Assembly (NCBI GenBank): GCA_900637705.1 | Contig: LR134390.1 | Span: 1,116,001-1,180,000, forward strand | Direction: 5' to 3' | Length of the DNA: 64,000 nucleotides | Source: Fusobacterium varium | Lineage (GTDB): Bacteria; Fusobacteriota; Fusobacteriia; Fusobacteriales; Fusobacteriaceae | Shown: in pieces, positions 4,769-9,197 of the stretch | Numbering within the stretch: the first letter of the stretch is position 1 | How the letters are laid out: each line of letters starts with the position of its first letter | Position numbers and translations under genes: made by a program | The notes under the pieces: generated by a model | Seen by the model: only the letters and a program-made list of their open reading frames with translations | The model's database searches: none | Told to the model about the DNA's origin: nothing

Positions 4769-6010
4769 ATGAAAATGAATATAAATGAATTATTAGATGA
4801 ACTTTATTCATATTCGATGCATGGAATAAAGCTGGGATTAGAAAATATAAAAAAGATATGTGAAGAATTGGGAAATCCTCAAAATTCATATAAAATAATT
4901 CATATAGCAGGAACTAATGGGAAAGGGTCAACTGCTACAACTTTGGAAACTATACTGTTGGAAGCAGGTTATAGTGTAGGAAAATATACTTCACCTCATA
5001 TATTGAAATTTAATGAAAGAATAAGAGCAGATGGGAAAGATATATCAGATGAAGATATAGCATATTATTATGAAATGGTAAAAAAAGCCATAGAAAATAA
5101 AAAAGTAAAACCAACATTTTTTGAAGTGACAACTGCAATGATGTTTAAATATTTTCAAGATAAAAAAGTGGATTATGTAGTACTTGAAACAGGTATGGGT
5201 GGCAGATTTGATGCTACCAATATCACTAAAGCAGATTTGTGTATAATAACTAATGTTACTTTGGATCATACTGAATATCTGGGAGATACTATTTATAAAA
5301 TAGCAAGAGAAAAAGCAGGAATAATAAAAGATTGTCCTAAAGTAATAGTAGCAGATAATAATAGTGAATTTTTAAAAGCTATAAATGAAGAAAAAGCAAA
5401 AGTGATTAATGTTTTAGAAAAATATAAATATGCTGAAGAAAAACTTGATTTTGAAAATTTTGTAACAGAAATAAAAATAGATGGAGATATTTTTGAGTTT
5501 TCTCTATTTGGAGATTATCAATTTAAAAATTTTCTTTGTGCTTATGAAGCAGCTTTGGAATTAGGAATATCAAAAGAAATAATAAAGAAAGCCAGCAAAA
5601 AAGTAATATGGCAGTGCAGATTTGAAAGATACAGCAATAATCCTCTTGTAGTATTAGATGGAGCTCATAATCCAGATGGAATGACAGAGCTAAAAAAAAT
5701 AATAGAAAAAGGTTATAAGCCAGAAGAAGTAGTAGCTATTGTATCAATATTGAAGGACAAGGATATAAAAAGTATGTTGAAGATTTTAAAAAGTATTTCA
5801 TCTACTTTGATATTAACATCTCTTGCAGAGAATCCAAGAGGAACTTCTGGAGAAGAGATATATAGACAACTCTCAAATATAGATGGCTGCAGTATAGAAA
5901 ATGATTTAATGAAAGCCTATAAAAAAGCTTTAGATATGAAGAAAAAAATAATTCTTATATGTGGGTCTTTTTATCTTTTAAGTAAATTTAAAGAGGAAAT
6001 AAATGAGTAA
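4769..6010 (+). CDS. folC: Folylpolyglutamate synthase / dihydrofolate synthase
   Basis: 413 residues of the Mur-ligase fold. It adds glutamate to (dihydro)folates, retaining them in the cytoplasm. The ATP-binding loop GTNGKGS is at about residues 48-54. Further family motifs are the ETGMGGRFDATN segment, LDHTEYLG, and a C-terminal VVLDGAHNPDG. Two ATG codons lie close together at the start (4769 and 4775); the first was kept. The 3' end overlaps the next small gene by 8 bases, suggesting translational coupling. Whether it also acts as dihydrofolate synthase cannot be told from sequence. Confidence 0.95.
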   Translation: MKMNINELLDELYSYSMHGIKLGLENIKKICEELGNPQNSYKIIHIAGTNGKGSTATTLETILLEAGYSVGKYTSPHILKFNERIRADGKDISDEDIAYYYEMVKKAIENKKVKPTFFEVTTAMMFKYFQDKKVDYVVLETGMGGRFDATNITKADLCIITNVTLDHTEYLGDTIYKIAREKAGIIKDCPKVIVADNNSEFLKAINEEKAKVINVLEKYKYAEEKLDFENFVTEIKIDGDIFEFSLFGDYQFKNFLCAYEAALELGISKEIIKKASKKVIWQCRFERYSNNPLVVLDGAHNPDGMTELKKIIEKGYKPEEVVAIVSILKDKDIKSMLKILKSISSTLILTSLAENPRGTSGEEIYRQLSNIDGCSIENDLMKAYKKALDMKKKIILICGSFYLLSKFKEEINE

Positions 6011-6284
6011 AAAAGTAAATACTTTGGGAATTTTAATAAAGATTTCATTTTTGGGAGCTTTTATATTTTATGAGCATAAAATGTATGAAGAATATAAGAG
6101 AAGTAAGAGAAATCTTGAGTATAGTCAAAAAACGATAAATAAAGAAGTTCGAGATTCTTTTTTGTTGAGAAAAGAAAATTTTTATCTGGATAAGGATTAT
6201 CAGAAAAATTTTGATAAATTAAAGAAAAATGTACCTAAAAATGAAATACAAGAAGAATTTCAAGGAGGAATAGTCTTTGAATAG
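6003..6284 (+). CDS. Small single-pass membrane protein, unknown function
   Basis: 93 residues with no family I recognise. One hydrophobic segment (residues about 8-23, TLGILIKISFLGAFIF) is followed by a charged, helix-forming tail rich in Lys, Glu and Arg. By position it looks like a cell-division or envelope accessory protein, but that is only a guess from size and topology. It overlaps folC by 8 bases upstream and the TTG start of hprK by 8 bases downstream, so it is co-translated with both. The overlapping frames and coherent topology support it as a real gene. Confidence 0.7.
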   Translation: MSKKVNTLGILIKISFLGAFIFYEHKMYEEYKRSKRNLEYSQKTINKEVRDSFLLRKENFYLDKDYQKNFDKLKKNVPKNEIQEEFQGGIVFE

Positions 6285-8223
6285 AGTTAGAAAATATAAA
6301 GAAAGTATTATTGTAAGGGATATAATGGAACATTTTAATATGGAACTGATAAATGAAGGTGATCTTGATTTTGAAATAACTACACCAAGTATATATCAGA
6401 TAGGGTATGAATTGATAGGTTTTTTTGATGAAGATGGAGATGAATTAAATAAATATCTTCACATATATGGAAAAAAAGAAGCTATGTTTGTAGATAAATT
6501 GTCTTCAGAAAAAAAATCTGATATGTGGAATAAATATTTTACATATAACTTTCCAGCACTGATTATAACTGGGGAAACTAAAGTTACGAAAGAAATGGTT
6601 GAAGCTGCCAAAAAAAATAATAAGACTATATTAAAAAGTCCTATGAGAACATCTAAGACTATAAGAGAATTAAAGTTTTTTCTATCTAAAGAGTTAGCAG
6701 AAGAAAAAATGATTAATGGATATATGCTTCTTGAAATACTAGGTGTAGGAGTAATGCTTACTGGATATGAAGATGCAAAACTTGGAGTAACTATAGAACT
6801 TTTAGAAAGAGGACATAAACTTATAACTGACAATAATCTTATTATAAAAAGAGTGGCAGAAAATGATCTTGAAGGATATAATCGTTTTGATAAAAGTATA
6901 ATGGATAGCCATTTTTTTATAGTAAATAATAAAGATGGAAGTAAAATAGATGTAACTACTCAATTTGGAATAAAAGCAACAAGAAATATGAAAAGAATAG
7001 ATATGCTTGTAGTACTCGAAGAATGGGACGAAAAAAAGTTTTATGATAGACTTGGTTTAGATGAAGTATATGAAGAATTTTTAGGAGAAAAAATTCCAAA
7101 AGTAACAGTACCTGTAAGAAAGGGAAGAAATCTTGCTATAATTTTAGAAACAGCAGCTTTGAATTATAGATTAAAAATGATGGGAGTAAATTCGGCTGAA
7201 TACTTTATGGAGGAATCAAAAAAGATAATAGCAGCAAATAGAGTAAAACAAGGAGATAGTGATATGAATAATGATAAACTGCTTCCAGTTAGAAAATTAA
7301 AAAATGAATTTAATCTAAAAGTTTTACATGGAGAAGAAAAATTAGACAGTACATATATAAAAACTACAGGAATACATCGACCATCTTTAGCATTGTCAGG
7401 ATATGTTGATATGTATGAAGATGAAGGATATACAGGAGTTCAGCTTTTTTCAAAAGTAGAATTTAAATATTTGGAAAGTTTATCTGAAGAAAAGAGAATA
7501 GAAAATTTAAAAAGATATTTAGAATTTCATTTTCCAATAATAGTACTTACATCAGACGCTGAAATGCCACAGTATTTCTTTGAACTGATAAAAGAAAAAG
7601 ATTTAATACTGTGTAGAAGTCCATATAAAAAATCCTCTCAATTAATAGCAAATTTCAATGGATTTTTAGAAACATATTTTACACCTAACTTATCACTTCA
7701 TGGAGTATTTTTAGAATTATATGGTTTTGGAGTACTTCTTGTAGGGAAAAGTGGAATAGGAAAAAGTGAAACTGCACTGGAGCTTATTCATAGAGGACAT
7801 AGACTAATAGCTGATGATATGGTAAAATTTGTAAAAGATGTAAGTGGAGATATAATTGGTAAAGCAGCCAAACTTCCATATTTTATGGAAATAAGAGGTT
7901 TAGGAATAATAGATATAAAAACTTTATACGGATTGGGAGCTGTAAGAATAAATAAAAAATTGGATATAATAATAGAATTAAAAGAGCAGGAAAGAGATAA
8001 TTATCTTACATCTGTAGATTATCAAAGTACTTCATCAGAAATATTAGGAAATAAAATACCTAAGGTAATATTGTATATTTCTTCTGGAAGAAATGCTGCT
8101 GCAATGGTAGAGATAGCTGTTATGAATCTTATGGCAATAATGCTTGGTCATGATCCAGAAAAACTTTATGAGGAAGGATTAAAAAGAATGACTGAAGAAG
8201 AAAGAAAAATTTTAGAAGCATAG
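6277..8223 (+). CDS. hprK: HPr kinase/phosphorylase, tandem double-length form with degenerate N-terminal copy
   Basis: 648 residues, about twice the usual 310-330 of HprK, which phosphorylates HPr on serine for carbon catabolite control. The C-terminal half (about 335-648) has an intact Walker A GKSGIGKS at 490-497, followed by RGHRLIADD and IRGLGIIDIKTLYG. The N-terminal half aligns to the same fold (ILGVGVMLTG, ERGHKLITDN) but has GYEDAKLG at 163-170 in place of the P-loop. Conversely the N-terminal half keeps the canonical IPKVTVPVRKGRNLA signature, while the C-terminal half has a diverged IPKVILYISSGRNAA. So each half keeps one of the two family signatures best. Start is TTG at 6277 behind GGAGG (6264-6268); ATG is not available in frame nearby. 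Confidence 0.9.
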   Translation: MNRVRKYKESIIVRDIMEHFNMELINEGDLDFEITTPSIYQIGYELIGFFDEDGDELNKYLHIYGKKEAMFVDKLSSEKKSDMWNKYFTYNFPALIITGETKVTKEMVEAAKKNNKTILKSPMRTSKTIRELKFFLSKELAEEKMINGYMLLEILGVGVMLTGYEDAKLGVTIELLERGHKLITDNNLIIKRVAENDLEGYNRFDKSIMDSHFFIVNNKDGSKIDVTTQFGIKATRNMKRIDMLVVLEEWDEKKFYDRLGLDEVYEEFLGEKIPKVTVPVRKGRNLAIILETAALNYRLKMMGVNSAEYFMEESKKIIAANRVKQGDSDMNNDKLLPVRKLKNEFNLKVLHGEEKLDSTYIKTTGIHRPSLALSGYVDMYEDEGYTGVQLFSKVEFKYLESLSEEKRIENLKRYLEFHFPIIVLTSDAEMPQYFFELIKEKDLILCRSPYKKSSQLIANFNGFLETYFTPNLSLHGVFLELYGFGVLLVGKSGIGKSETALELIHRGHRLIADDMVKFVKDVSGDIIGKAAKLPYFMEIRGLGIIDIKTLYGLGAVRINKKLDIIIELKEQERDNYLTSVDYQSTSSEILGNKIPKVILYISSGRNAAAMVEIAVMNLMAIMLGHDPEKLYEEGLKRMTEEERKILEA

Positions 8224-8236
8224 TTAGGAGGAAATT

Positions 8237-9185
8237 TTGAATAGTTTTTTAGATATAAAAAATAAAATAATAGAAAGTAAAAAATATTTATAACTGCTCA
8301 TGTAAATCCAGATGGAGATGCAATTGGAGCAGGATTAGCTCTATTATCTGGTATTGAAAAATTCAATAATAATTGTGAAGTAAGATTTGTACTTCAAGAT
8401 AAAACTCCAGATAGAGTAAAATTTTTAGAATTGGAAAAAAGAGCAGAAATATATAATGAAGATGAAAATTATGATATGGATCTTGCTATATGTGTCGATA
8501 GTGCTGCTTTGAGCAGAATAGGAGATGTAGAAAAAGCAATAAAGAATACATTTACAATAAATATTGATCATCATATCAGCAATCCAAAATATGGAGATAT
8601 TAATTATGTAGAAAATGTTTCTTCTACAAGTGAAATAATATATAAATTTTTAAAATTTTTAAATGTTGAAATAGATATAAATATAGGAGAAGCTCTTTAT
8701 ACTGGACTTGTAAATGATACAGGAAATTTTAAACATGATAATGTAACTGAGGAAACATTTAAGATGGCAGGATATTTGGTCAAAATAGGAGTAGATAATT
8801 CTAAAATAGTTAGAGAATTTTTAAATACTAAAAGTATGGCTGCAATAAAGTTCTTAGGTCAAGCTATGTATGAAATGAAATTTGATGAAAAAAAGAAATT
8901 AGCTTATTTTTTCCTTTCTAATAAAGATTTTATAAAAATGGTGGGAGAAAAGAAGATACAGAGGAAATAGTGGAAAATTTAGTATCATATGAAAAAGCAG
9001 AAGTATCTCTATTCTTAAGAGAAGATAAACAAGGAGTTATCAAGGGAAGTATGAGAAGTAAGTATGACATAGATGTAAACTCTATAGCAGGTATGTTTGG
9101 TGGTGGAGGACATCGTAAAGCTTCTGGTTTTACAAGCGAACTTTCAGCAGATGAGATAGTTAGAATAATTTTAGAAAAACTATAA
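8237..9185 (+). CDS. nrnA: DHH-family oligoribonuclease / pAp phosphatase (NrnA-like), two frameshifts
   Basis: About 315 residues once two single-base losses are repaired. NrnA degrades nanoRNA (2-5 nucleotide oligos, pGpG) and dephosphorylates pAp. The N-terminal DHH domain shows AHVNPDGDAIGAGLA, a VDSAA motif, NIDHHISN and GLVNDTGNFKHDN. The C-terminal DHHA1 domain shows the glycine-rich GMFGGGGHRKASGF. The first break is in the A-run at about 8278-8284 (SKKIFITAHVNPDG is restored with one A); the second is near 8950 (VGEKEDTEEIVENL restored). Start is TTG at 8237 behind GGAGG. Both breaks are homopolymer losses, so I think the gene is intact in the organism. Confidence 0.88.
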
Positions 9186-9197
9186 GGAGAGTGAAGA

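What the first reader, a model, noticed from the sequence alone, without database searches (positions are those of the whole stretch)
6277..8223. Double-length HPr kinase in which each half keeps a different family signature
Seen: 648 residues made of two HprK-like halves. The second half has the intact P-loop GKSGIGKS (490-497); the first has GYEDAKLG (163-170) instead. Conversely the first half keeps IPKVTVPVRKGRNLA, while the second has a changed IPKVILYISSGRNAA. Known: HprK is normally about 310 residues and hexameric, with the P-loop for catalysis and the C-terminal signature implicated in the phosphorylase reaction and subunit contacts. Inference: a fused pseudokinase-kinase in which the active site is assembled between halves, perhaps a trimer of fused dimers, with altered kinase/phosphorylase balance.
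Basis: partly seen in the sequence, partly recalled or inferred. Interest (0 to 1): 0.75.

Follow-up and report, generated by a model that had tools for sequence, protein, structure and literature searches.

The report
Split-duty tandem HPr kinase of Fusobacteria
In nearly all Fusobacteria that have it, the enzyme that switches sugar uptake through HPr is two fused copies of an ordinary HPr kinase, each of which has lost exactly the part of the active site that the other has kept, so evolution has dissected how this multi-subunit kinase works.

Summary
Window 6277-8223 encodes two complete HprK copies in one 648-residue chain, the only HprK in its genome. It is not a local oddity: 69 of 98 Fusobacteriota genomes carry HprK, essentially always as this tandem. 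About 235 HprKs checked in other phyla are all single-length. A 2008 paper already reported the tandem for F. nucleatum, so the fusion itself is known.

The main result is a strict reciprocal loss, for which I found no earlier description. All 66 second halves keep His140, the P-loop, Asp178/179, Glu204 and Arg206 (L. casei numbering); first halves lost most of these. All 65 first halves keep Glu235, Arg245, Gly247, Pro266 and Arg285; second halves lost these. Of residues conserved in at least 80% of single-chain HprKs, 20 before position 222 survive only in the second half and 12 after it only in the first; none go the other way (p about 4e-9). This matches how published HprK structures build each HPr site from two subunits.

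HPr with the Ser46 target motif accompanies HprK (67 of 69 genomes; 0 of 29 without). A reduced relative keeps mainly the live parts. Most likely each chain is a pseudo-dimer with one working composite site. Altered kinase/phosphorylase balance is not supported.

The parts
6277..8223 (+). tandem hprK gene, 648 aa: two fused HprK copies
   Evidence: only HprK in the genome
6313..6684 (+). first-half HprK_N domain (aa about 13-136)
   Evidence: model 10-314 aligned to 1ko7 1-297, Z 23.0
6697..7248 (+). first-half HprK_C domain (aa about 141-324): degenerate nucleotide core, intact tail
6763..6786 (+). degenerate P-loop GYEDAKLG (aa 163-170); one residue shorter than the canonical P-loop
7024..7056 (+). 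first-half live segment W250...YDRLG (aa 250-260) with Arg258 = L. casei Arg245, in the flexible loop that reaches the neighbouring subunit's site
   Evidence: inter-subunit role from PMC9399212
7111..7131 (+). first-half intact K3-loop PVRKGRN (aa 279-285; Pro279 = Pro266)
7189..7248 (+). first-half C-terminal HPr-docking helix (aa about 305-324), conserved across the phylum (F297 and I305 in 65/65)
7285..7668 (+). second-half HprK_N domain (aa 337-464)
7678..8163 (+). second-half HprK_C domain (aa 468-629): intact nucleotide core, degenerate tail
7699..7701 (+). His475 = His140, kept in 66/66 second halves
7744..7767 (+). intact P-loop GKSGIGKS (aa 490-497)
7813..7818 (+). Asp513-Asp514 = Asp178-Asp179 (proton acceptor/donor)
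   Evidence: role
7888..7905 (+). EIRGLG (aa 538-543) with Glu538 = Glu204 (metal) and Arg540 = Arg206
   Evidence: role of Glu204
8005..8019 (+). dead loop LTSVD (aa 577-581) in place of YDRLG: Ser579 at the Arg245 position
8071..8094 (+). changed K3-loop LYISSGRN (aa 599-606): Tyr600 in place of Pro266

Best explanation
The gene encodes a functional HPr(Ser) kinase/phosphorylase built as a covalent pseudo-dimer. An HprK gene duplicated in tandem at or before the base of Fusobacteriota. In ordinary HprK each HPr site is made by two subunits: one gives His140, the P-loop, Asp179 and Glu204 (ATP/Pi, Mg and catalysis), its neighbour gives the Arg245 loop and the C-terminal HPr-docking helix, with the neighbour's K3-loop close by. 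Once the two subunits were fused, one of the two reciprocal sites could decay: the second half kept the nucleotide/catalytic core, the first half kept the Arg245 loop, K3-loop and docking helix. Each chain therefore has one complete composite site and one dead one. Shown here: homology, phylum-wide reciprocal loss, co-occurrence with Ser46-bearing HPr, no other HprK in the genome. Inferred: that the halves pair as neighbouring subunits, that three chains make the hexamer (three live sites instead of six), that both kinase and phosphorylase activities persist, and that HPr-A (the HPr beside ptsI) is the substrate.
For: (a) 12 core residues complete in 66/66 second halves and 76/76 singles, only 1-6 kept in first halves; 7 tail residues complete in 64/65 first halves, 0-1 kept in second halves. 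(b) Of positions conserved in >=80% of singles, 20 core positions are kept only by the second half and 12 tail positions only by the first, none reversed, Fisher p 4.4e-9. (c) The split follows the published inter-subunit site of HprK: Arg245, Thr294, Leu301, Ile305 of one subunit with His140', Ser157', Asp179', Glu204' of the other (PMC9399212). (d) HPr with G-(K/R)-S-IMGLM in 67 of 69 HprK-positive and 0 of 29 HprK-negative genomes; two HprK-negative genomes have this HPr type with Asn at position 46. (e) G067's reduced ortholog keeps the live segments of both halves and little else. (f) Some second halves have lost the C-terminal helix altogether. (g) Both halves fold like HprK in the model.
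Against: No assay and no experimental structure of any tandem HprK. The AlphaFold2 model has pTM 0.40, so packing of the halves is untested. The inter-subunit assignment comes from one secondary paper that describes models built on 1KKM. The docking-helix residue Leu301 is Ser/Thr in first halves, so the HPr contact is not identical to L. casei.
Confidence: 0.83

Rival explanations
1. The second half alone is a stripped-down kinase (no Arg245, altered K3-loop, little or no phosphorylase), and the first half is only a scaffold or regulatory pseudokinase that completes the hexamer without contributing catalytic residues.
For: Second halves keep the whole nucleotide core. The published V267F mutant of L. 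casei HprK shows that K3-loop change can remove phosphorylase and spare kinase (own knowledge; the structure 2qmh appears), and second halves have Ile or Met at 267.
Against: A scaffold would not need to keep Arg245, Gly247 and Pro266 invariant in 65/65 species while losing nearly everything else of the active site; the kept set is the one that published structures place in the neighbour's HPr site; G067 dropped other parts of the first half but kept these.
Confidence: 0.1
2. The composite site is assembled between different chains (first half of chain A with second half of chain B) rather than within a chain, so the fusion mainly fixes stoichiometry.
For: Sequence alone cannot tell cis from trans pairing; the AlphaFold2 model did not place the halves (pTM 0.40).
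Against: In G067 only about 10-20 residues separate the first half's tail helix from the second half's His140 strand, which favours pairing within a chain.
Confidence: 0.2
3. The tandem arose by fusion of two already different HprK paralogues (or one acquired copy), not by duplication of one gene.
For: The tree with the wider sampling does not join the two halves directly; support for N+C as one group is 43 on all columns.
Against: On N-terminal-domain columns the halves group together with support 90. Reciprocal decay biases the catalytic columns against joining them.
Confidence: 0.2
4. The double gene is a sequencing or assembly artefact of this window.
For: The next gene downstream (nrnA) is broken by two apparent frameshifts in this assembly.
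Against: The uninterrupted tandem ORF of about 608-676 aa recurs in about 65 species, and the halves are only 26% identical.
Confidence: 0.005

Closest known systems
Canonical HPr(Ser) kinase/phosphorylase (HprK/P; S. xylosus 1ko7, L. casei 1jb1/1kkl/1kkm/2qmh, M. pneumoniae 1knx)
   Same: Both halves are HprK in sequence and predicted fold; the union of the halves has every catalytic residue; the same HPr Ser46 motif accompanies it
   Different: Two copies in one chain; each half keeps only one side of the inter-subunit active site
Tandem HPrK of Fusobacterium nucleatum (Comas et al. 2008, PMC2405797)
   Same: Same gene architecture, reported as a fusion of two HPrK domains in tandem
   Different: The passages read there report only the tandem state, not degeneration, reciprocal loss or distribution across the phylum
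Truncated HprK of alpha-Proteobacteria and Coxiella (C-terminal domain only; 3tqf)
   Same: HprK_C catalytic fold without the N-terminal domain, as in the reduced G067 protein
   Different: Single copy; G067 keeps the complementary pieces of two copies
Eukaryotic ATP-phosphofructokinase (fused duplicated halves with one kept and one altered site type)
   Same: Evolutionary logic: fusing a symmetric pair lets one of two equivalent interface sites decay or change function
   Different: Unrelated fold and reaction; comparison from memory, not tested here

Membership tests
HPr(Ser) kinase/phosphorylase (TIGR00679) | Match to the curated equivalog model over its cut-off | tested here: met
   498.9 bits against 240, two stretches
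HPr(Ser) kinase/phosphorylase (TIGR00679) | HprK_N plus HprK_C domain architecture | tested here: met
   PF02603 and PF07475, each in two stretches
HPr(Ser) kinase/phosphorylase (TIGR00679) | Walker A P-loop with His140, Asp178/179, Glu204, Arg206 | tested here: met
   Complete in the second half, in 66/66 species; mostly lost in the first half
HPr(Ser) kinase/phosphorylase (TIGR00679) | Arg245 loop and C-terminal signature with Pro266 and GRN | tested here: met
   Complete in the first half; second half keeps only GRN
HPr(Ser) kinase/phosphorylase (TIGR00679) | HPr substrate with Ser46 in the genome | tested here: met
   HPr-A with GKS-IMGLM beside ptsI; phylum-wide co-occurrence 67/69 against 0/29
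HPr(Ser) kinase/phosphorylase (TIGR00679) | Single chain of about 310 aa | tested here: not met
   648 aa; about 235 HprKs from other phyla are 300-465 aa. This is why it is called a variant; length is customary rather than defining
HPr(Ser) kinase/phosphorylase (TIGR00679) | Homo-hexameric quaternary structure | not testable with these tools
   Monomer prediction only, pTM 0.40
HPr(Ser) kinase/phosphorylase (TIGR00679) | ATP/PPi-dependent phosphorylation of HPr Ser46 and Pi-dependent phosphorolysis of P-Ser-HPr | not testable with these tools
   Needs an enzyme assay

The most novel reading that the evidence does not exclude
The Fusobacteriota enzyme is an obligately asymmetric kinase/phosphorylase: three live composite sites per hexamer plus three dead reciprocal sites kept as structural or regulatory elements (Gly155, Gly218, Gly270-Arg271-Asn272 and Glu278 stay near-invariant in both halves, and even the HprK_N domain shows reciprocal loss at a few conserved positions), giving half-of-sites regulation unlike canonical HprK and acting without a recognisable CcpA.
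Probability: 0.3. Interest if true: 0.75.

Novelty: new variant of a known kind. Interest (0 to 1): 0.64.

Why it matters
HprK is the master switch of sugar use in many Gram-positive bacteria and a proposed drug target, and how its identical subunits share active sites and cooperate is hard to dissect in a homo-hexamer. Fusobacteria have separated the two contributions into different, genetically addressable halves. That gives an evolutionary map of which residues act from which subunit and a ready-made system for testing trans-complementation, half-of-sites behaviour and the kinase/phosphorylase switch. A reduced relative (G067) suggests how small such an enzyme can become.

Tried and rejected
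AlphaFold2 of the full chain with the five sequences that its stated rule clearly admits gave halves that match HprK but pTM 0.40, so the packing of the halves was not read from it; a second job was not run because no coordinates are returned. Loci from the genome search and the fetch from genomes were deliberately not handed to structure prediction, as its rule does not list them. The second half as a lone intact HprK was rejected: Arg245, Gly247 and Pro266 are missing in nearly all species. A separate normal-length HprK doing the job was rejected: none in the phylum survey (weak third matches in G030 and G032, under 20 bits, are below the cut-off). Altered P-loop chemistry in the second half (Lys instead of Asp at position 156) was rejected as remarkable: 24 of 76 single HprKs also have Lys there. 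Literature: only PMC2405797 mentions Fusobacterium together with HPr kinase or HprK in the library; the pseudokinase and propeller searches gave nothing relevant. CcpA as partner: no match over the cut-off, best 201.5 of 442 bits.

Full report
What is there. The ORF at 6277-8223 (+) codes for 648 residues. Pfam finds HprK_N and HprK_C twice, and the HPr(Ser) kinase/phosphatase model scores 498.9 bits against a cut-off of 240. Each half alone finds the solved HprKs, and the model's residues 10-314 and 471-641 align with 1ko7 and 1kkm at Z 23.0 and 19.6. It is the only HprK in the 3.30-Mb single-contig genome.

Distribution. Of 98 Fusobacteriota genomes, 69 have HprK_C over the cut-off. Apart from fragments at contig ends, one broken draft copy (G056) and the reduced G067 protein, all have two matches in one ORF of about 608-676 aa, including genomes from other families. 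Most genomes of family f4 have none. In other phyla the tandem was not seen: 76 named single HprKs from many phyla, eight whole genomes that hold some of these, about 38 full-length matches in 199 genomes of the Enterococcus phylum and about 122 in 149 genomes of the Treponema phylum all lie in ORFs of about 300-465 aa. The tandem state of F. nucleatum HPrK was noted in 2008 (PMC2405797), so the fusion itself is known.

The reciprocal loss. I split the tandem proteins into halves and aligned 65 first halves, 66 second halves and 76 single HprKs, numbered as in L. casei HprK (the numbering agrees with the published His140, P-loop 155-162, Asp179, Glu204 and Arg245). Twelve core residues (His140, Gly155, Ser157, Gly160, Lys161, Ser162, Asp178, Asp179, Glu204, Arg206, Gly207, Gly209) are complete in 66/66 second halves and 76/76 singles; first halves keep 1-6 of them. 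Seven tail residues (Glu235, Trp237, Arg245, Gly247, Pro266, Arg285, Ile305) are complete in 64/65 first halves; second halves keep none or one. Among positions conserved in at least 80% of singles, 20 up to residue 222 are kept only by the second half and 12 after it only by the first, with none the other way round (Fisher p 4e-9). The test counts positions, not species, but neighbouring positions are not fully independent, so the p-value is a guide. Mean identity to single HprKs crosses over accordingly (core 0.30 and 0.53, tail 0.47 and 0.26, first and second half). Some second halves have lost the C-terminal helix altogether.

Why this split. PMC9399212, describing L. casei and E. faecalis HprK on the basis of 1KKL and 1KKM, lists the substrate site as Arg245, Thr294, Leu301 and Ile305 of one subunit and His140', Ser157', Asp179', Arg180', Ile198', Leu199' and Glu204' of the other, says that HPr touches the catalytic site of one monomer and the C-terminal helix of the next, and places the adjacent subunit's K3-loop by the P-loop. 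The split between the Fusobacterial halves follows that inter-subunit boundary. Inference: the chain is a covalent pair of neighbouring subunits, in which one of two reciprocal sites has been kept (second-half core plus first-half tail) and the other has decayed. Because a three-membered ring cannot alternate two kinds of unit, the pattern further suggests pairing across a two-fold axis and hence three fused chains per hexamer; this was not tested.

Function. The genome has two HPr genes. One, beside ptsI, has the classical target GKS-IMGLM; the other has GTS-LLKLL. Across the phylum the G-(K/R)-S-IMGLM motif occurs in 67 of 69 HprK-positive genomes and in none of 29 HprK-negative ones. Of the two HprK-positive exceptions, one (G097) has the near variant AKS-IMGI and the other (G060, 76% complete) has no detected HPr at all; two HprK-negative genomes (G064, G091) have HPrs of this type with Asn in place of Ser46. 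So the tandem enzyme is tied to Ser46 phosphorylation by comparative evidence.

A natural deletion series. Genome G067 (1.2 Mb) has at the same locus (an mtnN homologue upstream, nrnA downstream) an ORF of 287 codons, about 270 aa from its first Met. Both N-terminal domains and most of the first half's dead nucleotide core are gone, while NWNKEEHFDRLG, IPIKKGRD and a helix segment of the first half, followed after about 10-20 residues by HSVHG, GKSGVGKS, ADD and EVRGLG of the second, remain. Its HPr keeps Ser46-IMGLM. That the live pieces of both halves survive together supports joint function; the short linker favours pairing within a chain. It is a single draft genome, so the reduction should be confirmed in a relative.

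Origin. First halves form one clade (99) and second halves another (98). The two group together with support 43 on all columns and 90 on N-terminal-domain columns; the wider tree does not join them. This fits one tandem duplication at or before the base of the phylum with later losses, but a fusion of two paralogues is not excluded.

Limits. Nothing was assayed. The AlphaFold2 model rests on five sequences (pTM 0.40), so the packing of the halves is unread. The literature library is partial, so absence of an earlier description of the reciprocal loss is not proof of novelty.

Noticed in passing
window about 8236-9190 (+): The gene after hprK (nrnA-like DHH/DHHA1 phosphoesterase) is split over three reading frames by two apparent frameshifts near A-rich runs, whereas four relatives in the same genus have it intact (317-331 aa): an assembly error or a recent pseudogene.
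   Followed up: partly
G067 contig C10; L216:1558-2418 and L066:658-1518: A naturally reduced tandem HprK of about 270 aa that lacks both HprK_N domains and most of the first half's dead core, in a 1.2-Mb Fusobacteriota genome.
   Followed up: partly
L153, L154 and loci L155-L209: Fusobacteriota have two HPr types, one with Ser46-IMGLM beside ptsI and one with S-LLKLLS. The first type was not found with its motif in genomes that lack HprK, and in two of those (G064, G091) its Ser46 is Asn.
   Followed up: partly
own genome G000, whole: No CcpA over the curated cut-off (best LacI-family match 201.5 of 442 bits), so the partner that reads P-Ser-HPr in Fusobacteria is unclear.
   Followed up: partly
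window 6313-6684 and 7285-7668 (+): The HprK_N domains also show reciprocal loss at a few conserved positions: second halves keep S. xylosus Pro34, Leu36 and Gln51, first halves keep Gly35 and Gly54. This may point to a second shared interface or site.
   Followed up: no
window 6003-6284 (+): A 93-aa ORF with a hydrophobic N-terminal stretch overlaps the hprK start by 8 nt (possible translational coupling); in G067 this position holds a 205-aa protein that looks unrelated.
   Followed up: no
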